Source: Lunularia cruciata (lineage: Eukaryota > Streptophyta > Marchantiopsida > Lunulariales > Lunulariaceae). From it: a stretch of DNA of 64,000 bases. The position numbers and the translations under genes were made by a program. The stretch covers positions 38,144,333-38,208,332 of the forward strand of contig OX419756.1 of assembly GCA_948567375.1 (NCBI GenBank), given 5' to 3'. Shown here piece by piece: positions 5,881-64,000 of the stretch (its first letter is position 1; every line of letters begins with the position of its first letter). Below the pieces are notes generated by a model. It was not told the DNA's origin and did no database searches. It saw only the letters and a list, made by a program, of their open reading frames with translations.

Positions 5881-5934
5881 TCTAATGTCCAAAATGAGTT
5901 TTGATTAGCTCTACAACAAGATCCCTTCTTCCGA

Positions 5935-19630: not shown

Positions 19631-20290
19631 TATGAGCCGGCCTGTCTCTCACTCAAGCTGAAACTTTCATGGCTATTATGGTAGCACACCATGGACTAAG
19701 AAGGCAAGGAACCCCAACTCCATCATACTCTTCCAAGGCTAACATTCCAAGACTCAAGACATTACTCACTAGACAACTCAATGAGAGAGAGATAATTGCA
19801 AATGAGAGGATGATGAGTACTTCCTCACCCCTTGTTTGTATACTTGTGAAATAGTTACGCACCAAAGTTACTAATTATTAGAGTAACTCAAGTTACTAGG
19901 CTAAAATTCAAATAAATTCAAAAATTATAAAAGAATATCTATCCGCATGGGCATATTTCACTAAGCATGTGATCTTATCTTGACCCAACCACTAAGTCAA
20001 GGATTCCTTTACATGGGCTATCCTTGGACTATAGAAGAATCCAAGACAAAAAGGTTTGCAAGCCCAAGAGTTCTCAACTCTTTCTTCAAAGCCAAACACC
20101 TAGGAATAATACCAATTCAACACACTAGAATCCAAAATAGTGGTGCTCATCTTTTCCACTTCCTCTAAAGTAAGATCTCCTTTATCTTAGCTATGACTTA
20201 CTTTAGCTAATCATGACTAATGTAGAACTATCCTTTATCTCTATATAAATAATATCTATCAAGCACTTGTAATACCAAGCTAAATGTCAC
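19631..20290 (-). repeat. 3' LTR of copy 1c
   Basis: Matches 23318-23970 nearly base for base, but lacks the last ~40 bp on its right side. It begins TATGAGCCGG, with TG changed to TA. Confidence 0.85.
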
Positions 20291-20358
20291 TTGAAAATCC
20301 TTCTCCAATGGTAACTTGCATCTAGAATCATCAAAGCAATCACCTTTCTTGCAAAGTG

Positions 20359-24199: not shown

Positions 24200-25370
24200 A
24201 AAGGCATCACCAACAACCAAGGACTCACTTTTTGTGATGGTAAAATTATGGATCGTAAATGCCCCAAAATTATGCACCACTATCTTAGATGAATGTCATG
24301 ATTCTGCCATTGCAAGTCATGTCAGAGTAGACAAGACCTTGGATACAATCCAACGCCATTACTATTGGCCCAAGATGAGCAACAATGTGATGGAATATGT
24401 TTGGAGTTGCCTACTTTTTCAATAGAACAAAGCCTCTAATCAAGCTCTTGTAGGACTACTACAACCTCTCCCTACTCCTACACAACCTTGGCAATAGGTG
24501 AGTATAGATCTAGTCTGTGAATTGCCCAAGACCACCTCAGGCTTTGACTCCATCATAGTATTTTTGACCGACTTAGCAAAATGATTTATGTACGTTCTAC
24601 CACCAAGGATGAGACGGTTCCACAACTAGCTCAATTGTACTTAGATACAGTCTTCTCTCACCATGGCTTGTCTCAAGTGCTCATCACCAATAGAGGCACT
24701 CAATTTACTAGTCTATTTTGGAGAACACTCTTTGGTTTCTTCAAAACCAAATTAACCATGTCCACAACTAACCATCCATAGACCAGTGGCCAAACAAAGT
24801 GGGCTAATTGCACTATTGAAGATATGCTTTGGAGCTTCACCTTAGATGAGCAAGAAAGGTGAGACACTTTACTTCCATTGGTGGAATTTGCTTATAACAA
24901 TTTAGTAAATGCTTCCACCCAACTCACACCATTCTTCCTCATGTATGGTGAGCATCCTTTCACACCTTTGAGCTTGATAAAGATTTGTCTGGTGACTACC
25001 AAGGTTGATGTGGTCAACTCTTTTGTTTCAAGAATCTAACAAGGCATGGAGAATGCCAAAAATAGGTTGCAGATTGCCAAAAATTGACAAAAGCAATATG
25101 CCAATGCACATCATAGGCACATGGAGTTTGAGGTGTGAGATCAGGTTTGGCTGTCAACAACCAAGCTCACATTAGTTGGTCCTTGCAAGCTCAGATCTTG
25201 CTTTCTTGGGCCATTTCTCATTCTTTGTCAAATCGGTGATATGGCCCATCACCTCAAGCTACCACTACACATGAAAATCCATCTAGTGTTCCATATCTCC
25301 CTCCTATGCAGATATGCAACCTGACTAGGCCACTGTCCCTCCATACAAGACATTTGACCTTGCCTAACAC
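24200..25370 (+). pseudogene. Integrase of copy B (broken)
   Basis: Zinc finger: ECHDSAIASHVRVDKTLDTIQRHYYWPKM (the first His lies in CHDS), then VWSCLLF. Core: SIDLVCELPKTTSGFDS (first Asp), LITNRGTQFTSLFW (second Asp changed to Asn), NHP, stop, TSGQTKWANCTIEDML (third acid changed to Ala). The C-terminal GPF/Y-like part is LRSCFLGPFLILCQIGD. Two of the three catalytic acids are lost, in addition to stop codons. Confidence 0.8.
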
Positions 25371-26386: not shown

Positions 26387-27414
26387 TTTCACGCCATTTG
26401 TAGTGTCGCATCTAGATTGCTCGGACATTAGAGTTGTAGTGATAATAGTTAGAACTTTTTCAGCAGTTTCTTAGAGATTACTTTCCAACAGCCAGATTTT
26501 TTGTTCAATGTACTGACTTCACGGTGGGGCTCACCATCACTTTGCACTCTTTGCACCATTGAGTGTGTTGTCAGCAAGACCGTTAGGGTTTCAGACCTAG
26601 CTCAAGTCCATGGGTATACTTTTGAAGTGCAGCTCTAGAGAGCTCACTTCTTTGATGTTGAGCCTTTGAGTTCTTGGCTATGGTGGACAAAGGCTTGCAA
26701 GCATGACCTGGATTCTCTTAGCTAGAGTGGGTGTGGCTTGACTGTAATTAGTGCCCAATTGTTGGCAGTTTATAGAGTGATAGATTGATTACTGATCTGA
26801 GTTGAGTGTATTTGAGAGTTGTAAACAATCTAATTACATCAAAGAAGTGAAATCAAGCAGAAATTGAATGCAAGAACTTTGAGTGTTGGTGGTAGTTCCA
26901 AGTTTGGTGGATCATTGGTAGCTCAATTGAAGTTCAATTTTTCCTTGGCGTGCAGAAGCTTGTTGCTTGATGCAGATTTGGAAGTAAGGCAGTGTGCGGA
27001 AGTGCTTGCCAATTTTTGAGCAAAGAAGAAGCAATTTTTGAGTAGTGGTTTTGATTTTGAGCTCAAGAAGTGAAGGTAGGACCAATCTGTTGTGGCTTTG
27101 AGGCTACAAAGGCCTAGAAGAGCTAGCAAGCCAGCTTGCTAGTGTGAGGCTAGCTAGTTTAGAGTAGATCTTGGTCATTGGTTGGCAAAATCTGCCCATA
27201 CTGCTAGATTGTACGCAACAAGGTTTGACCCTTAGATCTCTTGTTTATAGACTGGTGCCCTAGCCAATTGGTCTACCCTCACTTGTTGTCCTAGTGATTG
27301 TGCCATTGCTATCTATACACTTTTAGCTTTGGCTAGGAGAGGTAGTTTGATCCCATTCTTGGTGATCTTGGTAGCTTAGGACTTAGATACAAACTTCTCT
27401 TATGTCAAATGCCA
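26387..27414 (+). repeat. LTR of the older DNMT-element copy
   Basis: Starts at TTTCACGCC, where the younger copy has TGTCACGCC, and ends ATGCCA before the putative primer-binding site TGGTGGAAGAGTC at 27417. The boundary is tentative because no second LTR is present. Confidence 0.55.
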
Positions 27415-27863
27415 AATGGTGGAAGAGTCAATCCCATGTTGTTTTATGAGATGGAGGTTTTTGTTTAGATTTCTTGTGATTGGACCCCCTCCATTCTTTG
27501 CTTCTTGTTTGTGCACCATGTTTTTGTAAGGTGCCCTGAATTTTGAGCATTGGTGCTCTGGTGTGCTCTTGATAGTGAAGCTGGAGTAATGACCAGTCAA
27601 ACTAACTTTGTTTCTCTTCAGGGAGGCAAGAAGTGATGACCTGCAGATTGTGAGAGTGCGTGTTGTGATGGCAGGTTACAGGTTGCACTTTCCCCTAGTG
27701 TAGTTATCTTCATTAGAGTTACATTAGTGGGTGGTGTTCCGAGGGTATTGGCACTTGGTGGTGCTTAGTTGGTGTTGGCACTTGATGGTGTACTTGCAAT
27801 TGTGACTTACGGTTGTAGTTTGTGGTTCTGGTTTGCGGTTGCAATTGCGGTTACTTTGTCACA

Positions 27864-28240
27864 ATGGAGTTCATTGGGGATTCTAGAGGAGTTATCCTTG
27901 CAATACGCAATGGGTTAACTTGGAGTGGCACTCAGTATCAGCTTGTATCTCAGGTCCCAATGAGTGAAGAGATTGACTTTGAGTTGGAGTTTGACACAAA
28001 AGCTGATTCAATTGAGAGTGCACTGGTGTGTCTGCACAGTTGTTGTGGGACATGGACAAGATTTATGGGGCCTCCAAAGACCCTAGGCGTTACTATGGTC
28101 CAATGGGTACCATTTAGTTGGATAACTTCATCCAAGAGTTTGATAGTTGGTGTGATCTGCAAAAAATACGGAACCCTACTTTGTTTACACCCTTCATGGC
28201 ATGGAAAGAGTTGTTTCAGCATTTGGAGAATCCGCCAATA
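27864..28240 (+). pseudogene. gag start of the older DNMT-element copy (truncated)
   Basis: MEFIGDSRGVILAIRNGLTW and on to DTKADSIESAL parallels the younger copy at 56884-57045. A one-base loss near 28025 shifts the frame afterwards. The ATG at 27864 corresponds to ACG at 56881, so it is unclear whether it is the ancestral start or a product of CG decay. Confidence 0.65.
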
Positions 28241-31483: not shown

Positions 31484-34400
31484 GGCATCCAAGATTCATA
31501 ACTTACCATCATAGAAAGTGAGTCCTTGGGTAGTGTTTATGCTTTTAGATGATTGAGCTCCTCCAATATATGGGTCATTTTTGTATTAGTAAGCATCCTT
31601 GGCCAGAATTAAGGTTATCTTAACCTTTACCACCAAATTGTTTGCCATAGGCATTTGGGTGAATGCATTTGTAAGTTGCTTCTTGCCTTCCACATATGTG
31701 ATTGTCATTTTGAACCATTGTCTCCACTTTGGCCATCAAATCTATCAACACGATAGATCTTTATGTCTCAAGGTAGACTAGAGGTTTGTGGTTTCTCTCC
31801 ACTACAAATGCCTTCTCACCAAGATAGTGATTCTAATGTTGGTTGTAAGGACAAAGGCCAACTCTTCTCATTTGGTGGTGTGATAGTTGCATTTTGCCAA
31901 TAATAACTTTCAAGAGAAATATTCAATTGGGTGCTATCTGTCACTCCATTTTTGTTGTAGGTCTATTCCTATTGCAATGCTTGATGCATCTATAGCCAAC
32001 TTGATTGGATGTTTTGGGTCATACCATCTCAAGATTGGTGCATGTAGTAATGTGTGTTTCAATTCTAAAAAGTCCAATTATTGTGCAATTCTTCACATCA
32101 CTTCTTTCCTTTGCCAAGTAGTGTCATTAGAGGTTGTTTGACCTTGGAGAAGTCCCTGACAAATCAATGATAGAACCTCATCAATCCCAAGAAACTCTTG
32201 AGTTGGAGTTTGATCTTTTGGAGCACATTATTTTTGAATGATCTCTATTTTATCTGTTAACACTTGGATACCTTGTACACTTACTCCATGCACCAAGTAG
32301 ACTACTTTTGACTTGCCAAACTCACACTTTGAGATTTTAACAAACAACTAATTCTATTACAAAACCTAGAGGACTTCTTGTAGATGTTGCTTGTGTTCCA
32401 TCATTGTCTTGTTGTAGACTAAGATGTCATCAAGGAAAATGATAACAATTTATCCAAGTATGGATAAAATATGTCATTCATCAAACTCATGAAAGTGGTT
32501 GGTATGTTGGTGAGGCCAAACGGCATCACCAGGTACTCAAAGTGACCATACCTTGTTCAAAAGGTAATTTTATGAACGTCTTCTTATGTAATCTTGATTT
32601 GGTTGTAATTGCTTTATAGATCAAGTTTGGTGAAGGGCTTTGTCCCATTGAGTTAATCAAACAGGTCATCCATACAAGATAATGGGTATTTTTTCTTCAT
32701 TTTTTGTTGATTTAGTCCTTGGTAGTCAATGTACATGCATATTGTTTCATCCTTCTTCTTCATAAACAAGACAAGAGCCCATAAGGTGGTATGTTGGGTT
32801 AGATAAACTCTTTCTATAACATATCCTTTATTTAAGCCTTACATTCCTCCAACTCATGAGGTGATAGTCAATATGGGGCCTTACAACAAGGTGTCTTCCT
32901 AAAATATCTCAATTTTATGATCTACTCTCCTTTTTGGTGGTAATCTTGAGGGTAAATCATTCAAAAAGACATCTTGAAACTCATTGATCACATCTTTCAA
33001 TTTCTTAGGAAATTTTCCATTGAGTTATGCACTCTAGATTTCTCTTGTTAGACCCATAAACATCTATTTTTCTCACTAATAGATGTTGTTCTTATGACAT
33101 AAAAAGGCAATCAATGCCTTTGTGATCTTTCTTTGACCAAAGATCTTCCATTGGCTAGTTCTCACTACTTTCTTTCTCTAATTGACCATGGGGTTATAAT
33201 GCTCCATCCACTACATTACTTACGATTATATCATAATGACTTAACCATATCACTTGCTACTCAATTGCTTCTTGATACTCTCTTATAAAGAGTACTACCT
33301 TTTTAAGTAACAACTCAATCCTTTCTGTTTGACTATTATGTAACTCTACTTTGTCATTCTCATCCTTTTCTAGTTCTGTCTCCAACCTTATTGCAATAGA
33401 GTGAGACAAAAAGTTCTTTATTGCTCCAAGGTCTATCAATACTCTCACTTGATTGCCTTCTATGACTCCATTTATAATAATTATTTATGTGTTTATCTCT
33501 CTCCACCTTTGCACACTTTTTCTCTTCCTCCCCCTACTTTTACTCTTCTCCATTGAGCCAATAAGACCATGAGGTACATTTATTGGCAATCTTCATTTTT
33601 CAATGTCATTTCAACATCCTCCTCTTCAATTTGTCTCTCCATGTTGTTCAAAGGTCATTTGTCTGGAGGCCAAGGGCCTCTAAGAAGATGAGCACTATAA
33701 TTGACGACTATGTACCCAACTCAACAATTGTAATAGCATTGTTGTTCTGCTCAAGCCCCTTCTCCTTGTGGGACTACATCTCTCCTTTCTTTGACCCATT
33801 CCCGTTCTCCTTGAAGTGTTCATGCTCCTCAAACCCAAATGTTGCCCAATTCCATAGGAATTGGTCCACCAAAGTGTGGTGTTTTAGCCCGATGGTGTTG
33901 GGTCAAGACTTTCCCTTCACCTCCTCCAAGCACCCCTACTAGGGCTTAGGCAATTGTAGGTAATGGCTTAAAAAACAATGCAAGGATTTTATATCATTAT
34001 CTCTTGGTGAATTCACTTCTTTAACCCCCATTTGAAATTTTCAATAGCTTCTATTGGACTCATATTGGTTATCACAATCTACAAATCAAGAAATACATCC
34101 ATATACTCTTGTATGTTGTTCTTTTACTTCAATTCTTATAGTTGAGTTTGGACCATCTACACAGAATCCATGGATGGGAAATTCTTCAATAACTCTTCTT
34201 GCATTGCCATCCAAGTGATCTTTCTTCTTTTTACCAACATTGATCATTTCCAAGCATCATACTATGTGAGAGTTTTATTGATCAAGTACCCACATGAAAA
34301 CATGCATGTGGAATAATCGGTGATCTTAGTTGTGAATAATTGAAAGTATCAATTCATTCTTAAAATCTAGTTTTCCATTGCTCTTATAGAATGCTATCCC

Positions 34401-49860: not shown

Positions 49861-49870
49861 GCGTGCACAC

Positions 49871-50222
<352 letters not shown>

Positions 50223-53196
50223 AGTGCTTCCTGGTGCTGAAGGAGGACTGTTCTTTTACCCTACCTCGACGTGCTTCTGTTTTTCAGAACTGCGTTGCCA
50301 TTTTGCTCTGCCTGGCATCTTCCTTATCCTTTTTATATGGGAAGATGATGTGGAGCTGAAGCTAATAACCTTTTGAAGAGAAAAGGTTGTTGTCCGAGCC
50401 TGAACTGGACAAGCTAGTCACTGGGGAGAAATACCGTTAGCGACTATCAAATATTTTCGCCATTACGCGGTCGAAGTTTCTGAAAGTAATCTGTGTTGTA
50501 GCTTGAGTGATATGTGGTCGGTGGACCTGAGATTCTCTACACCTCCAAGGAAGGTTTAGCCGGTGTCGCTCACCAGTCTTTGAGGACCGAACCAATCACC
50601 TTGTCTTCTGTTTGTCCAGGAGTATTCTGGATCTGAAGATCCAGATTGAAATCTTCTGTTCGTCCAGATCTGGATCGGAGATTGCCAATGCGAGTGCTGC
50701 GCAGGTTTGATATGACCACATGCCTTGATGATGGGCTGAATATTTTCGCACTCATGGGTGTCAGGTGTAAGCATCCGGGGAGATCTTTTCTTGGTACCCT
50801 CTGGATGATTTGAATGCAGTCTGTAGCGGACCTATCGGTGGCTATGTCAATTGTGTTCATGAATATGCTGACCTACGGTTTCCGCCTGCATTTACTGGTT
50901 TTGATATTCAGAATCCGGTCATCATAAGGGACCCGTCATTCGCATGGGAATGATAGATCTGGTGAGGTGGGTACTCTGCTCGCAAGTTAGATGTAGATCT
51001 CTTGGAGACCTTGAATCAGGTCCTTTTGAGGAACGAGGGTACCGAGATGAAATGAGCATACTGCCCTCACATCTCACTTATCCCATTCTCGATATTAATA
51101 GTCACTGATGATTTCGAGCTAGAGACCAGCAGAGAGGGGAGCTGATTGTGAGTGACGTCGACTGGAGATCTTACCTGAGGCAAGACATCGACGAGAATTT
51201 CCATAATAGATACAACAGTACAACGGTATCCTCATGAAGAGGGTGAGTATCTTCTACTCTTTCAATTAGGTGCCTTCCACATATAGGACAATGCACAAAG
51301 TCTGTTGCTGTGTACTTCTAGAGCCGTAAGGAGATGGCAAGACATCGTATCACCCTGAACATGCTTCCAAATACTATATAGAACGGTTCTGACGGGTTCG
51401 CACCCTTTGTTTTGCAGGACCTGAGGTCCGTGGATCTCCGTCGCACTTAACGATTCAGACGGCTTGGGGGATGGTCCGTTATTCGTGAGTCGGCACGGAC
51501 GTTACATTTGGACGACTGTACGAGGTGAGTTTCATGAAAATTCCCACCTTCTCTACGTACTCAGCAAGATAAGAACAAAGTAAAGGAAAATCAAGGGTTG
51601 ATCGTCTTAGCGCCTTCAGAGGGGTTCAGGTGCTTTGTATCCGATATATGCTGTGTTCCTGGCTGCCCCATCATATTTGATGGGTGTCGTTACGATGATC
51701 GTACTGGCTTGCTTCTGCTCTGAACCAGCGGAAATTTGTTGCTGTACTGAGTACCAGAAGCGGTGAAGCAGTAGTAGTGCCATGCGGCTCAAGGTAAAAT
51801 AGTTCCGGACAGTTCAGATGCTGGAGTGAACCGAGTGATCGCCTGGACCTGCTTATCCGAGAATGTGACGACTCGATCCAGGATCATCGTGAGGAAGGAT
51901 GGAAAGATGTTCATGAATTTGCCTGTGGTGGCTACACGTGGACCATCGCCTAACAAAGGTGTTTGGGGAAAGGTATTTTGGTGAATATTCAATCGTTAAG
52001 GCGCCAGTTAGGAGGTATTGGGATATTTCCAGAAGCAGGAGCTGTGAGCGGAGACCTTGCATTTCACCTCAGGACCTGGAAAATCCTTTTAAACCACACG
52101 AGTGTCTAGCATTTCCATATGACCTCTTCTCTCTTCAAAGTATTCTTATAGTGATAGTGAAACGTAGCCACGGCTTTTAACAATGCTCATGAACTCTCAT
52201 AAACTAAGAACGTGGGGTTGAAGCTAGCCTTCCATCGGGAAGGGGCGCAGTCACTTTTGGAAGTTGCTGTACACGCCAGCCTATAGTGAGGAGAATGAGC
52301 GACATTTATATTTGAGTAGTAGTGGCACGTAGAAGAGGATTGCACAGTTGTACAACCGTCAAACCGTGCAGCTTAAGCCTGCCGTTATGTACTCTCGTTG
52401 TACTTCCCATTTCGGCCATTTTGCTTAGTAGAATGTAGATCACAATTCTTCCTCAAATCTGCATTTTACGATGTGTACAACCTCCTCAGTTGAATTTTAC
52501 TATTTCGCCGAAGTATCAACTTACTTGCGTGATTGCTTTTGAGTTGTTTATATGTGGCCCAAAACTTTCAGCTTGAGGTATTCATTGTATAATTTTCATT
52601 TTCATTTGGAGAAAGAAGTTTTACTGTAGAGTTGTGAGGATGCCATATAATTTTTCGATGAGGGAAAGCAATTGTGTAGCTTCCGACCTCATGAGTCGGG
52701 AAGGAAAGAGTAATGGCTTATAGAGTACAGCTTATAGATCTACAAATGCTGATAATATGAGAGAAGAAGTAGGCGACCGCGTAGGAAAACCGAAGGATGG
52801 GAAGACAATAAGATAATATTGGGATGTTAGTGAAAAGTTGTAGAGACATCATTGAACGAAATCCTTATTAGGTAGTTGTCTCAATAGCCAATGTTCTGAA
52901 TGGGGTAACAAGTTTGGCATCAGATGCGGAGTTTTAAGAAATTGAAATTGAAGATTTCACTTTATCCATCCGAAATATGAAATATGAAATATGAATGTGA
53001 TTTTCTATCTCCAATATTTATTCCAATTCCATCCCCATATTCAAAGTTATTTTCCGACGCTTATCATATATTCATTATGAATCCTTCTCAAAGAAAACTC
53101 TCAAAGATAACTACTTTTCTTTATAATTGTCCATCCAAGCAGCTCTCAGACAGATGATTGGTTATGGAAAGTTCTTTTTACCTCTGCGAATCTTAG
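50223..53196. other. Intergenic sequence without recognised genes
   Basis: Moderate GC content to about 52200, then AT-rich. Several 60-95 codon frames occur on both strands, but none shows a recognisable motif or a convincing splice context. A short run of ATATGAA units lies near 52975-52995. Confidence 0.4.
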
Positions 53197-53667
53197 AACG
53201 TTTTAAAATGTTTTAAAATATTTTAAATTGTTTACAAAACGTTTTCTTTTCTTTTCTTGGTGCACGCAATCTTTGTTCTTGGTGGGCGAGAGTACCTGTG
53301 TAATCCCATTCATTTGAGCAGTCTCGAATTGCATTTTTATGCTCGGGTGACCGGTGTTGTCAAGAATGGCCAGCTGAACTGAGCCAAACAATTGAACTCT
53401 AAGAAAACATCGCAATGCTTGGAGGTGACCAAATCGAGGTGGATGCGGATGCCATCAGCCTCCTACTCAATACGGGAGAAGTTGAGGAGCAGAAGTTCTC
53501 CAACTATGTCTCCTGTTGCAAATATTGTTGAAAACATCTCAGATAGAATTCTTTTTGCCCCCATGAAACATGACATTCTTCATACAATAAAGATGTGACA
53601 TTCTTACACAATAAAAAAGAATGTTTAAAAAAAATTGTAGTATTTTAAAATGCATTTTAAAACGTTT
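53197..53667. mobile_element. Possible MITE with TTTTAAAA-rich inverted ends
   Basis: AACGTTTTAAAATG...TTTTAAAATA at 53197-53220 is inverted at 53641-53667, about 25 bp matching apart from a CA gap. The 470 bp interior is less AT-rich than its flanks and holds short open frames on both strands (minus 53415-53203; plus around 53412-53530). The ends are low-complexity, so chance inversion is possible. Confidence 0.4.
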
Positions 53668-55107
53668 GAAAATGACCTATTTTAAAACGAGAAACATACA
53701 AACATTTCCCTATGACTGATGCAATCTGAAGAATATCTATTGCTATGAAGTAAGAAATTCATCGTTCCAACAAGAGTGTATAAAATGTGCATGCATTAGT
53801 ACACATCTATGGGCAAGACCTTATCCTTCAATATTATCCAGAAATAATCTTTATTTATATCTCCTAGATAACTTAATATATTTATGTCTTCCTCCTCTTA
53901 TTTGCGAGAATTTATCCTTCAATAAATCCTAAAAAAATATTTATTTAATATCTCCTAGAAATATAATATATTCTTGTCCTCCTCTTTTTACTCTTAGAGT
54001 ACATGTGTCTCAAATAAAATTGGTAGAACCAAAGATCATCTCAACCACCTTGGCATGGGTACTTCTACATCCATTATGACTAAATTTGGAGATGGTACCA
54101 TAGTATGCATTTTGGTACTCAAGACTAATCCATTGTAGCATTTTGAAGTCACCTTGGCTACAATAGTTAATAGATTACTTTTTATTTTATTTTATTTTAT
54201 CAATAAATGTTGCAAATTATAGCTACTAGATTGCATATCCAACTTTACAACTCCTTTGTCTTTGGCGAGAGTTTGGATGGAAAATAACACATTGATACTA
54301 ATTATCAATACCACACTAGTTTATGCACAAGTACCCATCCTTGGCTCTAGAGAGAAGTATATCAAGTAGTACATCCAAACTTGAGGATTATTAACACATC
54401 AAGTATAGGAAGAAAATCACTTGGATGCTTCACTTCTATTTGGTAGTTTGAAATTGCATAACTTATTTGAGTACTTTTTGAATATTTTTGGATTATAACT
54501 TAGATGCTTCAACTTCCATTTGGTAGATTGAAAGTGCATGGTTTATTGAATATCTTGTAGATTGTTATTAGAGTATACTATACAGTTGCTCATAGATTAA
54601 GTGGCTTCCTTCATCTAGTACTCAATCATGATATACTTGTACAAATGGTTACAAGATCTATTGAAATGCCATGCATATATCCAATCCTTATAATAAAAGA
54701 TAGGTTAGAAAATATTATGATCAAAATATTAAAATCTTGTAAATAAAATAGGCAAAATCAACTAAATAATTGTATATTCCAATGCATTAATCTTGTAGCA
54801 CCTCTTCAGTAATGATGAAATTGTACTTTGCATGGAATATCATAATACCACAATCAGCCTACAAGGTGATGCACTAGAAATTAGACATTATGTCCACTCA
54901 GTCCTCGTTGGACAAAAGCTTGGTGTTATGATACTTGTATTTTTTTATAGTGCATTTAAAAATAATATGCATAAATGTAAGGATGTGCACTAGTCCGTGA
55001 GCTCTCATTAGTTCTGGATATAAATTATGAAGTATTTAATTTGTTTGGTACTTGCTTAAAAGAGGTTTATGAGGTACTTATGGTTTCATTTGGAATCCAA
55101 TCTACTT
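53668..55107. other. AT-rich intergenic sequence
   Basis: No coding potential or placed repeat. It is the flank into which the DNMT-bearing element begins at 55108. Confidence 0.5.
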
Positions 55108-56464
55108 TGTCACGCCATTTGTAGTTCCGCATCTAGATGCTCGGACACTGGAGTTCCAGTGATGGTAGTTAGAGTTATTCTAGCTGTTTCTCAGGGACTA
55201 CTTTCCGACGGTTAGATTTCGTGTTCGGGGTACTGACTTCACGGTGGGGCCCACCGTCACTTTGCACCGTTTGCACCGTCGAGTGTGCCGTCAGCGGGAC
55301 CATTAGGGTTTCAGGGCTAGCTCGAGTCCAAGGGGTATAGTTTCGAAGTGAGCTCCAGAGAGCTCACTTCTCTGATGTTGAGCCTTCGAGTTCCTGGCTA
55401 TGGTGGACAGAGGCCGGCGAGCGTCACCTGGATTCTCTATGCTTGAGTGGGTGTGGCTTGACTGTAATCAGTGCCCAGTTGTTGGCAGTTTATAGAGTGA
55501 TAGATCAAGTACTGATCTGAGTTGAGTTGAGTTGAAAGTGTTAAGCAATCTGATTACATCAGAGAAGTGAAGTCAGGGGGAAATCGGGTGCAGGAACGTT
55601 GAGTGTTGGTGGTATCTCCAAGCTCGGTGGATCGTGGTAGCTCGATTCAGGTTCTGTGTTTCCCTAGTGTGCAGAAGCTCGTGTAGTTGATGCAAATTTG
55701 GCAGTTAGGCGGACGGTGTGCGGAAGCGCTGGCCAAATTTCGAGCAAAGAAGGAGCAATTTTCGAGCAGTGTTGTGATTTTGAGCTCAGGAGGTGAAGGC
55801 AGGACCAATTTGCTATGAGTTGGGCTCAGAAAGTGAAATTGAAGGTGGAGTTGGAAAGCTCTTCTCATGAAATTGTGATTTGGAAAAACCCGTTTTGTCA
55901 ATTTGGCTCGAGTGGAAAGTTAGCGGGGGATTTGGCGGACATCCATCTTTAGGGTTTACGTCAGATTTACGTCAGATTTTTGGGCCAGAATTGGAGGAGT
56001 TTCGCTGTTTGGCCAGATTTGGAGAAGTTTCGCTAGTTTGGAGGAGTTTTGCAGATTTGGAGAAGTTTCGCCAATTTTGGAGGAGGTTCGAAGTGGCAAC
56101 AAGAAAGGCCTCATTTGGCGTTTAGAGGCTTCAAGGCATAGGGCTATGAGAGGCTACGAAGGCCTAGAAGGGCCAGCAAGCCAGCTTGCTGGCGTGAGGC
56201 TAGCTAGTTTAGTGTAGATCTTGGTCATTGGTTGGCAAAATCTGCCTTTCTTGCTAGATTGTGCGCAACAGGGTTTGACCCCTAGATCTCTTGTTCCTAG
56301 ACTGGTGCCCTAGCCAACTGGTCCACCCTCACTTGTTGTCATAGTGACTGTGCCACTGTTATCTATACACATGTAGCTTTGGCTAGGAGAGGCAGTTTGA
56401 TCCCATTCTTGGTGATCCTGGTAGCTTAGGACTTAGATACGAACTACTCTTATGTCAAATGCCA
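55108..56464 (+). repeat. 5' LTR of the DNMT-bearing element (tentative ends)
   Basis: Starts TGTCACGCCATTTG, a common start for Ty3 LTRs, at the point where similarity to the copy at 26387 begins. It is ended tentatively at ATGCCA just before the putative primer-binding site. It contains a ~325 bp segment absent from the older copy (55820-56145) with a short tandem array. No clear TATA box was found. Confidence 0.6.
55985..56090 (+). repeat. Minisatellite in the DNMT-element LTR
   Basis: Four or five imperfect copies of a ~20-27 bp unit of the type TTTGGAGAAGTTTCGCC, alternating GGAGGAG and GGAGAAG versions. Absent from the older copy. Confidence 0.75.
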
Positions 56465-56466
56465 AA

Positions 56467-56479
56467 TGGTGGCAGAGTC
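56467..56479 (+). promoter_or_regulatory. Putative primer-binding site, DNMT-bearing element
   Basis: TGGTGGCAGAGTC matches 10 of 13 bases of the initiator tRNA-Met site TGGTATCAGAGCC and is conserved in the older copy (TGGTGGAAGAGTC at 27417). A different tRNA primer is possible. Confidence 0.45.
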
Positions 56480-56880
56480 AGTCCCGTGTTGTGTTATGAG
56501 ATGGAGGGTTTTTGTTTAGATTTCTTGTGATTGGATCCCCTCCATTCTCTGCTTCCTGTTTGTGCACCACGTTTGTGTGAGGTGCCTTGACTTTTGAGCG
56601 TTGGTGCTCAGGTGTGCTCTCGGTGGTGAGGCTGGAGTGATGACCAGTCAGACTACCTTTGTTTCTCTCCGGTGAGGCAGGAAGTGATGACCTGCAGACC
56701 GTGAGAGTGCGTGTTATGATGGCAGGTTACAGGTTGCCCTTCCCCTAGTGTAGTTATCTCGGTTAGAGTTACATTAGTGGGTGGTGTCTAGTTGGTGTTG
56801 GCACTTGGTGGGGCACTTGGAGTTGCGACTTGCGGTTGCAGTTGGTGGTTCGGGTTTGCTGTTGCAATTACGTGGTCACG

Positions 56881-58200
56881 ACGGAGTTCTTTGGAGATTC
56901 CAGAGGAGTTAGCCCTGCAGTACGCAGTGGGTTTACTCGGAGTGGTACTCGGTATCAGCCTGTATCTCAGGTCCCAGTGAGGGAGGAGATTGACTCTGAG
57001 TTGGAGTTCGACACAGGAGCTGATTCAGTTGAGAGTGCACTTGGTGTGTCCGCATCGTTGTTGTGGGACATGGACGAGATTTATGGGGCCTCCAAAGGCC
57101 CTAGGCATTACTCTGGTATAGTGGGTACCATTGAGTTGGATGACTTCATCCAGGAGTTCGATAGTTGGTGTGATCTGCAGCAGATGCGGAACCCGACTTT
57201 GTTCACACCCTTCATGGCATGGAAGGGGTTATTTCAGCACTTGGAGGGTCCACCAATGGATGATTACCATGAGTTCAGGAGAGCTCATTTGGAGGAGATT
57301 GAGTTATGGAGACAGTATTGGTCTCCACACTATGTCTCCATCACTTCAGGCTCGGTGGCCAAGAGTAGATCGGCTGTACCTACGAGTTCTAGCTCGAGTA
57401 GTGTGGGTGGAGCTAGTGGAGGTGCACTAGCTGGAGATAGTGCTACTACGAGTGGAGGTACCGCTGCAGGAGGTGGTGTGGTACCGGGGTTTAACCCCAT
57501 GGTTGAGTTCTTCCTATGTTTGAGGCAGAACTACCAGGGAGTCCGGACTGACAAGCTGAGGAGCTTGCAGGAGTTCCAGCGGAAGGCTGGAGAGAGCCTA
57601 CGCGAGGCATACACTCGCATGAGGCGGCTGATCAGTTTCACTCAGGGAGTTACTGAGGCCCAGGCAGTCCAGTTTTGGTATGGGATACTGGACAGGGAGT
57701 TGCGACGTAGAGTTCGTGATGCTACGTTGTTGCAGGCTACTTCGCCCACTTTGGCAGTAGTCTTTGGTTTGGCTGAGCGTATTGAGCTCAACATGGTGGA
57801 GGAGAGAGTGGTGACAGCTGGATTTGGTAGAGAGACCTCATCCACGGTTGTGACTTCTTCTAGAGTGCAGCAGAGTGCACCACGCCCAGTTGGTTTTCAA
57901 GGATAGGGTGGACAGCCCAGATCCTATGGAGCGAGTGGAGGGCCTAGTGGAGTTAGACCCTTACCCTCATTTTTGGGTCAGCAGCAGCCAGTGAGTGGTG
58001 GTGTTGCTTGTTGGACTTGTGGTGGACCTCACCATAGGAGAGAGTGTACTCAGGGCAGCGGACCTGATACCTCTGGTGCATCATAGCCAGCACAGAGGCA
58101 GTGTGAGCACTGCCATAGATTTGGTCATACTAGTGACCGGTGTTTTGACCTACACTCGGAGTTACGGAGTGGTAGGGCTGCTATGACAGGTAGTAGAGGA
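56881..58200 (+). pseudogene. gag of the DNMT-bearing element (two stops)
   Basis: The open frame begins upstream; the position matching the ATG of the older copy is ACG (56881), and the first in-frame ATG is at 57070 (MDEIYGAS). Gag motifs: TIELDDFIQEFDSWCDLQQM, FTPFMAWKGLFQHLEG, a Ser/Gly/Ala-rich linker, then RSLQEFQRKAGESLREAYTR, AVQFWYGILDRELRRRVRDA and VFGLAERIELNMVEE. Two zinc knuckles follow: CWTCGGPHHRREC (58009-58047, C-x2-C-x3-H-x4-C) and CEHCHRFGHTSDRC (58102-58143, C-x2-C-x4-H-x4-C). TAG stops at 57904 and 58084 stand where CAG is likely. Confidence 0.85.
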
Positions 58201-59700
58201 GCTCTAGTTCATGGAGGACGAGGTGGTAGAGGTGGTGGTAGAGGATCTACACCTAGTAGGGGTGCAGTACCTGCCCTTACTTCTGACACAGCTATGGCTA
58301 CTCGGATTGAGCAGTTGGAGCAGAGATTGGCTAGTATGGCTATTGCTCATAGGAGATCAGATTCAGGTGCTGAGGCTTCCACCTCATATGCTGGTGATAG
58401 AGATGCTTTGGACTTCATGTGCGGAGCAGCACAGGTGGATGCATCTGCAGCAGTGACTAGGAGTGCAGTACGTGCTCCAGAGCCTAGAGGAGCATCAGTG
58501 GAGTTGGACCCACAGAGAGGAGAGGTTGGGAGACAGGTCAGACTTCCCCAATCTTTCATGCTATCTGAGGCATTGCAGACGACATCCATGGTTCCTAGAC
58601 GTCCCAGTGCAGGTGTGGTAGGTGGTGATGGAGTACATGATGGACTACCTGCTAGTCAGCCACCTGCTACTACACAGACTGAGTCTAGCATGATGTTGGG
58701 GGCGGCTCAGCTGATTATGCGGCATCCTTTATTTTCAGCCAGTGACATGTTTACATTGGGAGTTGACCCAGCCCCAGTGTTCCGGTTGGCTGCCACGTTG
58801 TGTGAGAGTAGGGATGGGGCAGTTTCTACTACTAGAGCAGAGGTGGTTGGTAGTGGAGCTGACTTGGTTGAGGAGCATGGGATCCGTTCAGCGACCAGTG
58901 GTTTATGGCAGGCATCAGCGGCTAGACTGGAGGAGTTGCCAGCTAGACCGGCCTTTGAGAGAGCGCGGTTTACACCTGGTCTTGTCCTATTGGATAACCA
59001 GAGGGGGATCTTTCATTTAGTGGGACCTTCAGGGAAGGTCTATACACCACAGAGAGTCTTGTTAGACTCTGGTGCGCAGCCCCTTATGTTGGGGAAGGCT
59101 GCAGTTGTTGGTCTGGAGTTACGGAAGACCGATGTGGAGAGGTGTCCATTTCAGATCCAGACATCTCTAGGTGGTGGTTCGACACAGTACATCACACGTG
59201 GGGAGCTTGTTGTCCAGGTTCAGCCTGGTCATCCGATTGATAGCTCAGTGGTGAGAGCTCAGGCTATTGCGACGATAGCTGAGTCCTATGATGTGCTAGT
59301 TGGGGGAGCAGTGTTATACCCTATGGGTTTCAGTATTGACTATTGGGAGGAGACAGCCTCTTATAGACCTGGTTGGCAGTCTGGTGAGGGACGGGTATGT
59401 CGCCTACTAGTACGTTTCAGTAGTGGCAGTCTTGGCTCACTACAGTCCGGGACCATGGCAGCATCAGTTTTGGCTTTCAGCGGTGCAGTTACTTGGCCTG
59501 GTGACTTGTTGGAGGGGAACACCCATGCAGAGGATACTCCAGTACCAGAGGAGATCACTCGGCTATGGAGTACGAGTGGGATTGTTCCATCCACCTTGGA
59601 TGTTCCATTGTGGAGTTCAAAGGAGGCATTGCAGCAGCATGCAGATCAGTTGGTGCAGCAGGCTTGGAGTGGAGCCTTCGTACCATCAAGGATGAGTGTG
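58201..59700 (+). pseudogene. Aspartic protease region of the DNMT-bearing element
   Basis: An uninterrupted frame (58183-59730) first encodes an Arg/Gly-rich segment (GGRGGRGGGRGSTPSRG) and a coiled segment (ATRIEQLEQRLASMAIAHRR). A retropepsin-like domain follows at about 58980-59390, with the active-site loop RVLLDSGAQPLML (Asp codon 59065-59067, DSG intact) and a C-terminal SYDVLVGGAVLYPMGF block. The matching polyprotein frame leaves this one near 59680; the frame itself stops at 59730. In active elements this protease releases gag, methyltransferase and RT parts from the polyprotein. Confidence 0.8.
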
Positions 59701-60780
59701 AGGATGAGCCTCCAGAGGCGATTGCTTTGACACCTCTGGATACCACACTCATTGCTTGGCAGTATCCAGTAGAGGGGATATGCCTATTGGAGTTGTTTGG
59801 TGGGATCAGCACCGGACTAGCTGCGGTGTTACAGGCGGGTATCCGAGTATAGAGGTACTTGTATGTAGAGAGAGATGAGACTGCTAGGCGAGTCTCTCTA
59901 CATCATGTGGCACACTTGGCCTATCGGTATCCGGAGTTATTACCGATGTCAGCAGTCAGAGGTTACCAGAAGGCCTTACCAGGAGACATTTCCTTATTGG
60001 GGGCGCATGACCTAGAGAGACATGGGCCTGTTCACTTGGTGATTTCTGGATGGCCATGTCAGGGACATACACGTGCGGGCCGCGGTTTGGGTCTTCAGGA
60101 TCCTCGTTCTGGTGTGTTTTGGGAGATGTTACGGATACTACGACATCTCCAGGTTCATCAGTCTGTTTCTCCAGCTTACCTTTTGGAGAACGTTCCATTG
60201 ATGGGTGATTCTCGCACTAGAGTGGTGGCGAGTACACATCAGGTCCATTCTTGGATGGGACCTGCTGTATTGTTAGATGCAGCCAGAGTGGGATCACGGG
60301 CTCATCGTCTTCGTCTTTGGTGGACGAACCTTTTACCCAGAGAGGTTCTACAGCGTAGTTATGATGGGATTCAGCGACTAGACCACATTCTTGTTGATGA
60401 TATCTTGGATGCTGGACGTCAATCTCAGACAGTGGTAGTGGCTGATAGGTCACCTATGGCAGTGGTGAACCTAGTTGGACAGCCTAGAGCTGCATTTCCC
60501 ACACTCATGAGTTTCCCAGGCTCTCATGCTTTTCGAGAGGGAGGACCTGGACTTGTTTGGGACTCACAGTTACAGCAGTTGGTGGAGCCCAATGCTGATG
60601 AGAGAGAGCGGGCGATGGGTTTTCGCACCGGTATTACCGCTGTTCCAGCAGTGTCAGAGGCATCCAAGCGTCAGGTTTTAGGTCAGGCTATGGACCTGAA
60701 CTGTTTGACCTGGATTGTGAGCCTTGGTTTGGCAGAGCAGCGTAGGATGCGCTTGATAGGCATCACCACCCGGACACTTG
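59680..60780 (+). pseudogene. Cytosine-5 DNA methyltransferase domain in the retrotransposon polyprotein
   Basis: About 330-360 residues between protease and RT, in frame with RT. Motifs in standard order: I (LLELFGGISTGLAAVLQAG, from about 59781, S-adenosylmethionine binding); IV (SGWPCQGHTRAGRG, catalytic Cys codon 60057-60059) followed by LQDPRSGVFWEMLRIL; VI (LLENVP, Glu codon 60186-60188); VIII (VGSRAHRLRLWWTNL, about 60288-60330); a short target-recognition region (FPTLMSFPGSHAFREG); IX-like (ERERAMGF); X (RQVLGQAMDLNCLTWIV). By eye the motif VIII block and the LDAARV stretch before it look most like DNMT3 (animal form AHRARYFWGN). No regulatory domain (PWWP, ADD, BAH, UBA) is attached. 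One TAG (59850) lies just after motif I. The enzyme would methylate cytosine in DNA; the target context is not predictable here. Confidence 0.9.
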
Positions 60781-61200
60781 TGAGCCCTGTGCCTATCGAG
60801 ACGATTCAGGCACATGCTGGGGGTGATGGACCGAGTGGACATGGTATTCTTGGGACACATCCAATAGCTACTAGGGAGAGTGGTCTACTTGGAGTCCATC
60901 CAGGTGAGCGTGGGCTACTTGGATTACACCCTTGGTCCACATGGGATGCAGCCAGAGGACGTATGGAGCTTGCAGCCAGAGTGGAGGGAGTTTTTCACAC
61001 AGAGGTTGGGACCTTTAGTGGTCGGGAGCATGACACCATTGCTCCCAAGGGCCCAGTGTAGCAGCCAGTCAATACGTCTTCCACTCCTACTACAGTTACA
61101 GAGGATACTTGGGAGCCAGATCTTGGACCCAAGCTTACTGGAGAGGAAAGACGGAGGGTTTGGAGGTTCTTGAGGAGTCACACGAGTTGTTTTGCCTTCA
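60781..61200 (+). pseudogene. Linker between methyltransferase and RT
   Basis: The same frame continues through a repeated motif (GILGTHPIATRESGLLGVHP, then GLLGLHPWS) and a TAG at 61059 into RRVWRFLRSHTSCFAFSMKD, the usual entry to RT in Ty3 elements. The three-fold LG(T/V/L)HP repeat is unusual. Confidence 0.6.
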
Positions 61201-61960
61201 GTATGAAGGATTTGGGTGCTCTGAAGGGACCTGGTATACGGATTGAGCTGACTAGCGACACACCTGTATTCCGACGTCCTTATCGATATAGTGAGATGGA
61301 GAGGACATTGATTCAGAGCCGGAGTAGTGACCTTTTTGAGGCTGGTTTGGTGGAGATTTCACATGGAGAGTATGCATCAGCGACAGTGATGCCAGCCAAG
61401 AAGGATATGCATGGCAACTATACAGATAGGCGGATGTGTGGAGATTACCGTCCTATCAACCGACAGACCAGGGCTGATCGGTATGCCATGCCTACACCGG
61501 AGGAGATTTTTGATGCGATTGGGCATGCAAAGGTCTTCAGTACTTTGGATCTTCGAGCGGGATATCATCAGTTGCCGATCAGGGAGGAGGATAAGTCCAA
61601 GATAGCATTTTGGGCTATTGATCCTCACGGCAAGGATGTGTTATATTAGTGGAGGTTCTTACCATTTGGGTTAAAGAACGCTCCCGCTGAGTTCCAGAGG
61701 GTCATGGATAGGATCCTAGCTGGACTGGATTTTGCTCGGTGCTATATTGATGACATTTTGGTGTATAGCACTACTGTGGAGGAGCATGAGCGACAGTTGT
61801 TGGAGGTGTTTGAGAGGTTGAGATCTCATGGACTCAAACTACATCCTGGGAAGTGTAGGTTCTTCCACGAGCAGGTTGAGTATTTGGGTCACACTATCTA
61901 CCCCGGAGGACTTGGTGTTCAGCAGACCAAGGTGGAGGCTATTGCACGTATTCCTCGGCC
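61201..61960 (+). pseudogene. Reverse transcriptase of the DNMT-bearing element (one stop)
   Basis: Complete block order: GIRIELTSDTPVFRRPYRYS, SATVMPAKKDMHGNYTDRRM, CGDYRPINRQTRADRYAMPT, STLDLRAGYHQLPIREEDKS, then TAG (61647) in place of Gln, WRFLPFGLKNAPAEFQRVMD, the catalytic CYIDDILVYSTT near 61742-61777, and KCRFFHEQVEYLGHTIYPGG. Only the single stop breaks it. Confidence 0.93.
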
Positions 61961-62560
61961 TACGGATGTGAGTAGAGTGCGAGCATTCCTTGGGTTGGCG
62001 AACTTCTATCACCGCTATGTTAGAGGATTTAGTGCCATTGCCAAGGCCTTGACGAAGCTGACCAAGCTTACACAAGAGTGGTGTTGGGGAGATGAGCAGG
62101 AGAGAGCTTTTGTAGAGCTCAAGGAGAGGTTGACATCTGCTCCTATTTTGAGGAGACCAATCAGGGGACGAGCATTTCAGGTTCACACTGATTGGAGTAT
62201 GTTGGGGCTTGGAGCGGTGCTCACCCAACATGATGATGAGGAGAAGGAGTTTGTGGTGGCCTATGCTAGTCGCTCCAACAATTCAGCGGAGGCGAAGTAT
62301 AGTTCATATGAGGGAGAGTGCTTGGCAGCAGTTTGAGCAGTAGCACATTTCCGATGTTACCTATTTGGTAACCCCTTCACTCTCATCATTGATCATCAGC
62401 CGCTGAAGTGGTTGATGGAGTCCGAAAAGCTTTCAGGGAAGCTTGCACGATGGGCTCTAATTTTACAGGAGTATGATTTCACGGTTGTTCACAGACCTGG
62501 AGTGGTGAACCGTGATGCAGATGGGTTGAGTAGAAACCCATGTCCCAGCCAGCAGGATCA
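61961..62560 (+). pseudogene. RNase H of the DNMT-bearing element (one stop)
   Basis: After the connection segment (VSRVRAFLGLANFYHRYVRG) come FQVHTDWSMLGLGAVLTQHD, YSSYEGECLAAV, then TGA (62334) in place of Trp, AVAHFRCYLFGNPFTLIIDH, LARWALILQEYDFTVVHRPG and RDADGLSRNPC. The catalytic acids appear present (first Asp in HTDWS, Glu in YEGE, Asp in IIDH, Asp in DADG). Confidence 0.9.
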
Positions 62561-62699
62561 GACCGGAGCACGTTGGCATGGTGAGACAGATGAGGAGATG
62601 GTGCCAGGTTGGCATGCATCGGCCTTTCTGTGTATATTTGCAGAGACTTTGGTGGTATCTCTCTCAACACATACAGGAGGAGTTATTGAGGTCACAGAT

Positions 62700-64000
62700 C
62701 CAGAGAGTGAAGATATTGGTACAGTTCAGCGAGACATTCATGATGATGTCTTAGTGATGGACTATCTTCGCACTGGTGTTGTGGGTGGCACAGTTGGGGC
62801 CAAGGAGAGAGACCGTGTTCTTCAGCGAGCCAGACGGTTCAGATTGGAGGGTAGACACCTTTTGCGTGTATGGGAGGATGGTAGAGTGCGAGTAGTACCA
62901 CTTCCATCACAGAGACCACAGTTGGTCCGTCATGCTCATGAGGAGCTAGGACATTTTGGAGTAAAGCGTACATATAGCTTACTCCAGAGTCATTATTGGT
63001 GGCGCGGTATGCAGACCGAGGTATAGCAGTTTGTTGCCAGATGTGTGGTTTGTGACCGAGTTAGAGCATCATTCAATGCTCCTACGCCACAGTTATACCC
63101 ATTACCTATCATGGGATTGGGTTACCGTTGGAGTTTGGACTTCGCCGGACCTTTACCGCTGACTGTGAGACATCATTGGTATGTTTTGGTGATGGTGGAG
63201 CACTTCTCCAAGTGGATTGAGTTGGTGGCACTTCCTGACAAGTCTAGTGAAGGGACAACTTACTCGTTCCTGGATCGAGTTCTTAGTCATTTTGGTGCAC
63301 CAGCTGAGGTTTTGACTGATCAGGGTACAGAGTTCTTGGGAGAGTTTCAGGTCTTGTGTGACAAGGCTTTGATTGATCATCGTACTACATCCCGAGATCA
63401 CCCTGAGGCAGATGGCTTAGCAGAGAGAGTGGTTCAGACGGTGAAGAGAGGATTGCGAAAGTATGGTTTGCAGAGAGGCCACTTGGGAGATTGGGATCTC
63501 CAGTTACCTTGGTTGGCCATGGGCTATCGGTTCAGCCGGCAAGCCTCCTTAGCATCCTTCTCTCCATACTTTCTACTCTATGGACGAGATCCAGATTTAC
63601 CTGCAGCCATTCGTCGAGATGCTACTGTAGTTTTGGACTTGGATGACCCTGATGTATGGATGAGCGCATGTTCTCAGCGGGCAGAGATCTTTCGGAGAGT
63701 GATGCCAATGGCCTTCGAGAACTTGGCAATTGCTCAGCATAGAGATACTTTACGCTGTGCTACCATTCGAGGAGGAGGTTATAGACCCTCGATCCGTCAA
63801 TTTCATCCAGGCGACTATGTATATCTACAGCAGACAGCACCAACGACACTTGATGTTTCTACAGGCCGCACTATCTTGAGAGTGCGCGAGGTTTTGCCAT
63901 CTGGAGTCCTTGTGTTAGAAGGACGTGATGGTGTTGTTTGGAAGGATCATGTGCGCAATTGTGCACCATGCCACCTCCCAAACATTGATGGTACTATGGA
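62700..64000 (+). pseudogene. Integrase of the DNMT-bearing element (one stop, runs off the window)
   Basis: HHCC zinc finger: VRHAHEELGHFGVKRTYSLL ... YWWRGM, TAG (63024), QFVARCVVCD. Catalytic core: SLDFAGPLPLTV (first Asp), VLTDQGTEFLGEF (second Asp), DHPEADGLAERVVQTVKRGL (Glu), with all three acids intact. The C-terminal part (FHPGDYVYLQQTAP ... VLPSGVLVLEGRDGVVWKDH) looks like the GPF/Y-type tail. No chromodomain is seen before the window ends. The frame is open from 63027 to 64000. Confidence 0.92.

What the first reader, a model, noticed from the sequence alone, without database searches (positions are those of the whole stretch)
59680..60780. A Ty3/gypsy retrotransposon with its own DNA methyltransferase
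Seen: in one continuous frame with RT, RNase H and integrase, a complete set of cytosine-5 methyltransferase motifs (FGG, PCQ, ENV, RxR, X) sits between protease and RT. Known: retrotransposons that captured DNMTs are reported from dinoflagellates and charophyte algae (de Mendoza and colleagues, 2018); I know of none in land plants. Inference: the element may methylate its own DNA copies or nearby chromatin, perhaps to hide from or tune host silencing, or to shape where it integrates.
Basis: partly seen in the sequence, partly recalled or inferred. Interest (0 to 1): 0.97.

Follow-up and report, generated by a model that had tools for sequence, protein, structure and literature searches.

The report
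Bryophyte retrotransposon carrying DNA methyltransferase
A jumping gene present in hundreds of copies in what is probably a liverwort genome carries the gene for a DNA-methylating enzyme and a likely histone-reading domain, and relatives sit in other bryophytes and in green algae, so the very mark that plants use to silence such elements may be written by the element itself.

Summary
The domain is real. From window 55108 to past the window's end lies a decayed Ty3/gypsy copy with a cytosine-5 methyltransferase between protease and reverse transcriptase; a model of a close relative has the DNMT3 catalytic fold. It is no one-off: all 130 scored genomic copies (window included) are at least 97% identical. 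The frame is not continuous with RT: one UAG separates Gag-protease-DNMT from RT-RNase H-integrase in 28 of 28 copies read and 771 of 789 junctions counted, in the type I readthrough context UAG-CAG-CCA in 26 of 28. So the DNMT lies on the Gag side. The integrase ORF ends in a PHD finger. Repeats are split (A...B-A-B), with TG...CA ends in 6 of 6 and 4-bp target duplications in 5 of 6 copies. Relatives occur in Marchantia, Riccia, Calypogeia, Sphagnum and chlorophyte algae. The known kind is KnitGypsy-Dnmt3 of Klebsormidium (2018); the paper listings I saw showed none from land plants. Most likely role: methylating the element's own cDNA or insertion chromatin (inferred). No activity, transcript or readthrough was shown; a host origin of the DNMT is unresolved.

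The parts
55108..55556 (+). 5' terminal repeat A1 (starts TGTCACGCC), preceded by the 4-bp target duplication ACTT
   Evidence: the matching A2 lies past the window at C2:38208784-38209231 (window numbering 64452-64899)
55557..56766 (+). leader up to the start of the Gag frame; a possible hairpin TCTGAT-TAC-ATCAGA spans the A1/leader boundary
   Evidence: hairpin by eye
56767..57906 (+). Gag frame (decayed copy); Retrotrans_gag 16.6 bits, below its cut-off of 24.1
58009..58128 (+). two CCHC-like zinc knuckles (CWTCGG..., CEHCHR...)
   Evidence: motif by eye, positions; a stop lies between the two
59059..59313 (+). retropepsin-like protease region, LLDSGAQPL ... SYDVLVGGAV
   Evidence: motif only; no Pfam hit
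59775..60746 (+). DNMT3-like cytosine-5 methyltransferase domain, motifs I-X in canonical order, broken once in this copy between motifs I and IV
   Evidence: fold of a relative
61059..61061 (+). shared UAG between DNMT and RT, followed by CAG CCA (UAG-CAR-YYA)
   Evidence: 28 of 28 copies; 771 of 789 junctions; motif definition
61062..62084 (+). start of ORF2 with reverse transcriptase (RVT_1 at about 61422-61898); decayed in this copy
   Evidence: limits mapped from L013
62085..62474 (+). RNase H (RT_RNaseH, RT_RNaseH_2); decayed in this copy
   Evidence: limits mapped from L013
62907..63404 (+). integrase: H2C2 zinc-binding part and rve core; decayed in this copy
   Evidence: limits mapped from L013
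63405..64000 (+). rest of the integrase; the element runs off the window: PHD finger at C2:38208367-38208501 (window numbering 64035-64169), then B1-A2-B2 to about 65002

Best explanation
A Ty3/gypsy retrotransposon family that stably carries a DNMT3-like cytosine methyltransferase. Shown by sequence: Gag, zinc knuckles, protease and DNMT form ORF1; RT, RNase H, integrase and a PHD finger form ORF2; one in-frame UAG in a type I readthrough context separates them; the element is bounded by TG...CA, has split repeats A1...B1-A2-B2 and makes 4-bp target duplications. Inferred: most ribosomes stop at the UAG, so the DNMT is made as part of, or cut from, the abundant Gag polyprotein and enters the particle, while occasional readthrough supplies RT and integrase. 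The enzyme then methylates the newly made cDNA, or the insertion site, where the PHD finger may hold the integrase on histone H3 tails. Inferred from the repeats: reverse transcription yields a linear B-A...B-A DNA, its ends are joined (the A2-B2 junction), and the integrase cuts at the palindromic B/A junction GACAGCTGTC, giving A...B-A-B. Of the possible purposes of the methylation I put protection or marking of its own cDNA first, at about 45%.
For: DNMT identity: Pfam; best solved relatives DNMT3A, then 3B; Foldseek DNMT3A first, E 1.8e-18, TM 0.80 of the target and 0.50 of the whole model, on a model of relative P0001 with mean pLDDT 80.9. Family: 771 exact junction matches; 130 scored copies at 97-100%. 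UAG: 28 of 28, 771 of 789; the longest open frame among the 130 is 1448 aa; predicted ORF1 proteins of Sphagnum, Calypogeia and five unnamed clusters end 92 residues after motif X (7 of 65 rows). PHD: 40.9 bits, E 2.2e-10 in L013, 41.3 bits in the window's own copy. Ends and duplications. Constraint: DNMT dN/dS 0.41; nonsynonymous-to-synonymous ratio 0.74 of that expected from mutation context, against 0.73 Gag, 0.80 protease, 0.65 RT. Long retention: catalytic cysteine in 39 of 39 element rows that cover it and the glutamate of motif VI in 40 of 40, bryophytes to chlorophytes. DNMT and integrase trees both separate the two layouts.
Against: No enzyme activity, transcript of this family, readthrough product or methylome was seen. 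DNMT dN/dS is the highest of the four domains, and stops are not depleted (observed over expected 1.2 in the DNMT, 0.9-1.3 in the others), so the copies now in the genome decay freely; 8 of 28 have no stop in the DNMT. None of the seven stretches first fetched has both ORFs at full length. The 28 copies were found mostly through a match around motifs IV-VI, so their motif retention is biased. Copies are 95.7-100% alike at the junction, so the UAG could come from one founder. The cross-species endings rest on predicted proteins, not DNA; many of the 65 rows end elsewhere, and two bryophyte gene models (P0040, P0119) and the fused proteins P0096 and P0113 run on into RT. C-to-T change is high at CG and CHG (7.0%, 5.3%) against CHH (1.4%), so the copies have been methylated, which host enzymes alone can explain. 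No RNA structure stands out 3' of the UAG (z +1.25), though type I does not need one. In 11 of 39 rows, mainly of algal type, the proline before the cysteine is glutamate. The K. nitens DNMT gave no activity in yeast, called inconclusive by the authors.
Confidence: 0.72

Rival explanations
1. The DNMT limits or marks the element itself: self-methylation helps the host to silence new copies, which lowers harm and lets a high copy number persist.
For: Several hundred copies exist and they decay as methylated DNA does. Self-limitation is one of the ideas discussed in PMC5890265 (discussion read).
Against: Host DNMT3, DRM and a CMT-like gene are present and could do the same; some copies are young (repeat divergence 0.005-0.016 in four copies).
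Confidence: 0.2
2. The domain acts on RNA, or as a nucleic-acid-binding part of Gag, and DNA methylation is not its job.
For: It lies on the Gag side of the stop, downstream of the zinc knuckles; RNA methylation was considered for the LINE elements in PMC5890265.
Against: The catalytic cysteine is kept in 39 of 39 rows that cover it, and the fold search ranks DNMT3 structures first.
Confidence: 0.12
3. The UAG is not programmed: a founder of the family had a nonsense change, and ORF2 is translated by reinitiation or from another RNA.
For: Copies are very alike; relatives P0167-P0169 start ORF2 with M close to the boundary, which fits reinitiation in those lineages.
Against: Similar boundary in predicted proteins of Sphagnum and Calypogeia; type I context in 26 of 28; ORF2 stays open for 1037 aa in two of the seven stretches; 771 of 789 TAG.
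Confidence: 0.3
4. One-off chimera or host DNMT pseudogene inserted by chance.
For: The window copy is decayed.
Against: Hundreds of copies of the junction and 130 scored DNMT copies; the host DNMT3 genes are elsewhere, are split into exons and fall in another clade.
Confidence: 0.01

Closest known systems
KnitGypsy-Dnmt3 of Klebsormidium nitens (de Mendoza et al. 2018, PMC5890265; abstract, section 9, discussion and passages read; supplement not seen)
   Same: Gypsy domains, a non-rearranged Dnmt3-related DNMT, repeats arranged as in DIRS elements, purifying selection on the DNMT.
   Different: Host here is probably a liverwort; the DNMT is upstream of a UAG on the Gag side, whereas that paper places it in the Pol ORF. 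The words PHD and 'target site' do not occur in that paper's main text. No K. nitens sequence was available to compare.
SymbioDIRS-Dnmt3 and SymbioLINE-Dnmt of dinoflagellates (same paper)
   Same: Retrotransposon-borne cytosine methyltransferase; DIRS-like repeat layout in the first.
   Different: Tyrosine recombinase or LINE machinery; described there as unrelated to the gypsy element.
Host DNMT3 and DRM of plants
   Same: Catalytic fold and motifs.
   Different: Element DNMTs form a separate clade (100/99); motif order is not the rearranged one of DRM.
Chromoviruses (Ty3/gypsy with a chromodomain; recalled)
   Same: A chromatin-reader domain at the C-terminus of the integrase ORF.
   Different: PHD finger; no chromodomain hit.
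Tobamovirus replicase readthrough (type I UAG-CAR-YYA, PMC3542737, passages read)
   Same: UAG followed by CAG CCA.
   Different: Joins Gag-DNMT to Pol of a retroelement; readthrough itself not shown.

Membership tests
Ty3/gypsy LTR retrotransposons | order protease-RT-RNase H-integrase with the RNase H type and rve integrase of pol | tested here: met
   protease by motif only
Ty3/gypsy LTR retrotransposons | two whole identical LTRs at the ends | tested here: not met
   A only at the 5' end and B-A-B at the 3' end in 6 of 6 copies; in L010 A1 is cut to 74 bp
Ty3/gypsy LTR retrotransposons | TG...CA ends and short target duplication | tested here: met
   ends in 6 of 6, 4-bp duplication in 5 of 6
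KnitGypsy-Dnmt3 kind | gypsy element with in-element DNMT3-like DNMT | tested here: met
KnitGypsy-Dnmt3 kind | A-coding-B-A-B repeats | tested here: met
   compared with the legend and text read
KnitGypsy-Dnmt3 kind | DNMT in the Pol ORF | tested here: not met
   a UAG separates DNMT from RT
KnitGypsy-Dnmt3 kind | common descent with the K. nitens sequences | not testable with these tools
   no protein named from K. nitens in the lists (best 120 of 161, 44, best 120 of 357)
DNMT3 family | catalytic fold and motif order of DNMT3 | tested here: met
DNMT3 family | nesting inside eukaryotic DNMT3 | tested here: inconclusive
   the element clade lies outside DRM+DNMT3+phage enzymes; few reference rows; DNMT1, CMT and DNMT2 not in the tree
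DIRS elements | tyrosine recombinase | tested here: not met
   rve integrase; no recombinase hit in ORF1 or ORF2
Programmed type I readthrough | UAG-CAR-YYA | tested here: met
   26 of 28 copies
Programmed type I readthrough | readthrough product | not tested
   needs an experiment

The most novel reading that the evidence does not exclude
An ancient green-lineage clade of Ty3/gypsy elements packages a writer (DNMT, made at Gag level before a leaky UAG) and a reader (PHD on the integrase) of chromatin, and integrates not from the linear LTR ends but from a joined-end circle that its DDE integrase opens at a palindromic junction inside the LTR, which would be a new integration route for LTR elements.
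Probability: 0.33. Interest if true: 0.9.

Novelty: new variant of a known kind. Interest (0 to 1): 0.72.

Why it matters
DNA methylation is a main mark by which plants silence retrotransposons. Elements that keep a methyltransferase with its catalytic cysteine in both green algae and bryophytes suggest that writing this mark pays for the element. Marchantia polymorpha, a laboratory plant, has gene models of the family, so the question left open in 2018 (what does a retrotransposon gain from a DNMT?) may become testable in a land plant. The split repeats together with an ordinary integrase and target duplications also ask how such elements close and insert their DNA.

Tried and rejected
Led nowhere: Rfam on the window, no match; repeats inside window 50000-64000, none of 80 bp or more, because the 3' repeat lies beyond the window; viral contigs with P0001, no relative. 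One search used a pattern that I had mis-spaced and found 0; corrected. Counts of the repeat junctions did not complete. RNA structure after the UAG: none beyond shuffles.

Considered and rejected: chimera or single pseudogene; DRM-type enzyme (motifs not rearranged); DNMT1/CMT type (no such chain in the PDB list up to E 1; not in the trees); a DIRS element (integrase is rve); the 61059 stop as mere decay. A simple capture of a host DNMT3 is not proven: with the own DNMT as BLAST query, three phage enzymes score 77-83 bits, mouse DNMT3C 54 and the host DNMT3 44; with a profile of element DNMTs, DNMT3C scores 80.6, the phage enzymes 70-75 and the host DNMT3 67.

Not done: naming the organism from a marker gene; comparison with K. 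nitens DNA; counting RT copies that lack the DNMT.

Full report
The observation. Window 59680-60780 holds a cytosine-5 methyltransferase. Pfam gives DNA_methylase at E 9.2e-8, 32.3 bits, cut-off 22. Motifs I, IV, VI, VIII, IX and X stand in canonical order at 59784, 60048, 60180, 60294, 60600 and 60675 (motif names recalled). A protease motif lies upstream at 59059 (by motif only), and RT, RNase H, H2C2 and rve follow from 61062. Among solved structures DNMT3A ranks first (E 1.7e-7), then DNMT3B; HaeIII, HhaI, DNMT2 and, weakly, DRM2 follow. A model of relative P0001 (mean pLDDT 80.9) matches DNMT3A with E 1.8e-18, TM 0.80 of the target and 0.50 of the whole model.

The frame. The window copy is decayed: there are premature stops in the Gag/zinc-knuckle, DNMT, RT, RNase H and integrase stretches, and a frame change near 59690. 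Other copies show what is decay and what is not. ORF1 (Gag to DNMT) is 1428 aa in L010 and L011, ORF2 (RT to the C-terminus) 1037 aa in L013 and L014, both from stop to stop, with one TAG between them; none of the seven stretches has both at full length. The TAG is in 28 of 28 distinct copies read, followed by CAG CCA in 26. Genome-wide, 789 exact matches of the junction with any codon at that place include 771 with TAG (reversed-pattern control 0). Among 130 scored copies, 13 with no stop in the match have open frames of 1428-1448 aa and none is longer (counted by eye). UAG-CAR-YYA is the type I readthrough consensus of tobamoviruses (PMC3542737, passages read). The copies are close relatives, so conservation inside the family is weak evidence by itself. 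Better: of 65 predicted proteins with a motif X and 61-329 residues behind it, seven end exactly 92 residues after it, from Sphagnum jensenii (P0098), Calypogeia fissa (P0016) and five unnamed clusters (P0003, P0004, P0018, P0041, P0046); eight more end at 134-141 residues with GIQ or SIQ. The others end at many places, some perhaps at contig ends, and the gene models P0040 (Riccia) and P0119 (Marchantia) and the fused P0096 and P0113 run into RT. I saw no DNA for any of these. In the own genome the DNMT lies on the Gag side of the stop.

Family size, selection and age. The own genome (566 Mb, 74 contigs) gave 130 scored DNMT copies, window included, among 13,115 candidates, all at 97-100% identity. 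Pooled dN/dS is 0.26 Gag (24 copies), 0.32 protease (24), 0.41 DNMT (28) and 0.28 RT (28). Relative to an expectation that keeps sequence context, the ratio of nonsynonymous to synonymous changes is 0.73, 0.80, 0.74 and 0.65; stops are not depleted (0.89, 1.31, 1.20, 1.16). I read this as past constraint on the DNMT much like that on the other domains, diluted by free decay after insertion. PCQ and ENV are in 28 of 28 copies, but the copies were mostly found by a match there. Against one natural copy, C-to-T change is 7.0% at CG, 5.3% at CHG and 1.4% at CHH, as expected of methylated cytosine. Four copies have repeat divergence of 0.005-0.016, roughly 0.4-1.2 million years at an assumed 7e-9 per site and year (recalled); L014 has 0.103 and looks chimeric; L010 was not dated.

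Repeats. Six of six copies examined share A1, leader, ORFs, a G-rich tract, B1, A2, B2; in L010 A1 is cut to 74 bp and part of the leader is missing. Ends are TGTC...GACA in six, and 4-bp target duplications flank five (ACTT, CATA, GAGG, TAGC, ACTC); L014 lacks one, and its element lies inside the DNMT of an older copy. The A2-B2 junction CTGATTATTGTGGC is in 6 of 6; the B1-A2 junction GACAGCTGTC, a palindrome, in five of six. The G-rich tract directly before B1 suggests that plus-strand priming makes B-A the LTR. Then A2-B2 is an LTR-LTR joint, and the integrated ends come from the B/A junction inside an LTR. This circle-opening model is my inference from six copies; a genome-wide count of the junctions was asked for and not answered. 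The A-B-A-B layout itself is described for K. nitens as 'the same as that of a DIRS retrotransposon'.

PHD finger. ORF2 ends in a PHD finger, 40.9 bits in L013 and 41.3 in the window's own copy, where it lies just past the window. Its nearest solved relatives include CHD4, KMT2C/D, KDM5B, DPF3, PHF21A, ATXR5 and UHRF1. Several of these read H3 unmodified at K4 (recalled), so targeting of such chromatin is a guess.

Relatives. The DNMT search returned 161 proteins, 120 listed, with named members from Marchantia polymorpha, Riccia sorocarpa, Calypogeia fissa and three Sphagnum species. The integrase-PHD search returned 357, 120 listed, among them Haematococcus and Volvox. Of the 280 fetched proteins, 17 have the order RNase H-DNMT-integrase, Haematococcus P0243 among them, and seven have the DNMT before RT. 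In a tree of 44 rows the 40 element DNMTs form one clade against host DNMT3, mouse DNMT3C and two DRMs, 100/99; the own, bryophyte, protease-DNMT and DNMT-RT rows group within it (17 rows, 93/93). The integrase tree (57 rows) has two clades: 16 rows with DNMT before integrase plus five with none in that frame; and the own element, three fused DNMT-RT rows and 32 with none in that frame (100/99). Rows without a DNMT in the frame may have it in another ORF or lack it; this was not resolved. Simplest reading: one capture, carried along with the element, and one move within it. With three phage and two cyanobacterial plasmid enzymes added, the element clade (96/93) lies beside a group of DRM, DNMT3 and phage enzymes (95/96, midpoint root), so the donor is open.

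The host. The genome has DNMT3 genes in exons (L001, L004), a rearranged DRM (L002) and a CMT-like exon (L003) (L001 and L002 confirmed, the others by eye), so it is a streptophyte. Eight contigs of 60-85 Mb hold 558 of its 566 Mb. The integrase pairs with that of Riccia (100/91). This suggests a liverwort; Lunularia cruciata fits in its Ty3/gypsy bursts (PMC9985172, passages read), but this is not proven.

Literature. De Mendoza et al. 2018 report DNMT retrotransposons from dinoflagellates and K. nitens (abstract, section 9, discussion and passages). A 2025 survey mentions DNMT3 in retrotransposons of streptophytes and dinoflagellates, naming Copia and DIRS and citing the 2018 paper (PMC12344493, passages). 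Yaari et al. 2019 treat host DNMT3 (PMC6453930, passages). Blasia (PMC13182070, passages) was only checked as a possible host. My ten searches showed no report from land plants in the titles and abstract starts listed; lists were capped and only openly licensed papers are held.

Verdict. A genuine, large, widely shared family; a new variant of a known kind. Identity is near certain, the role of the methylation is inferred, and readthrough and the integration route are testable proposals.

Noticed in passing
window 26389-28240: A second, older relative of the same element: repeat A at 83%, leader at 87% DNA identity, Gag start at 68-81% protein identity, then no further match.
   Followed up: partly
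window 4499-6726, 8664-9446, 18656-19634, 20302-21006, 24243-25078, 31952-32751: Distant pol relics with 24-35% identity to ORF2.
   Followed up: no
P0036: A protein labelled as from a Candidatus Obscuribacterales MAG falls in this retrotransposon clade: perhaps a misbinned contig.
   Followed up: partly
P0130, P0138, P0141, P0156, P0223, P0229, P0242, P0243, P0246, P0248, P0254: Element DNMTs with E in place of P before the catalytic cysteine, 11 of 39 rows.
   Followed up: no
P0243 and P0253 (Haematococcus lacustris): Two close integrases, one with and one without a DNMT between RNase H and integrase: domain loss or a gene-model effect.
   Followed up: no
P0165: An ORF2-like protein (RT-RNase H-integrase-PHD) whose name is that of a transcriptome assembly, 71% identical over the integrase-PHD part: a sign of transcription in some unnamed species.
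   Followed up: no
L046, L047, L048: Phage cytosine methyltransferases that group with DNMT3 (92/79) rather than with two cyanobacterial plasmid enzymes.
   Followed up: partly
window 49866-49992: A (CA)n-(AG)n microsatellite of 127 bases.
   Followed up: no
P0167-P0169: Related ORF2 proteins begin MP.. close to the DNMT/RT boundary, which hints at reinitiation instead of readthrough in those lineages.
   Followed up: no
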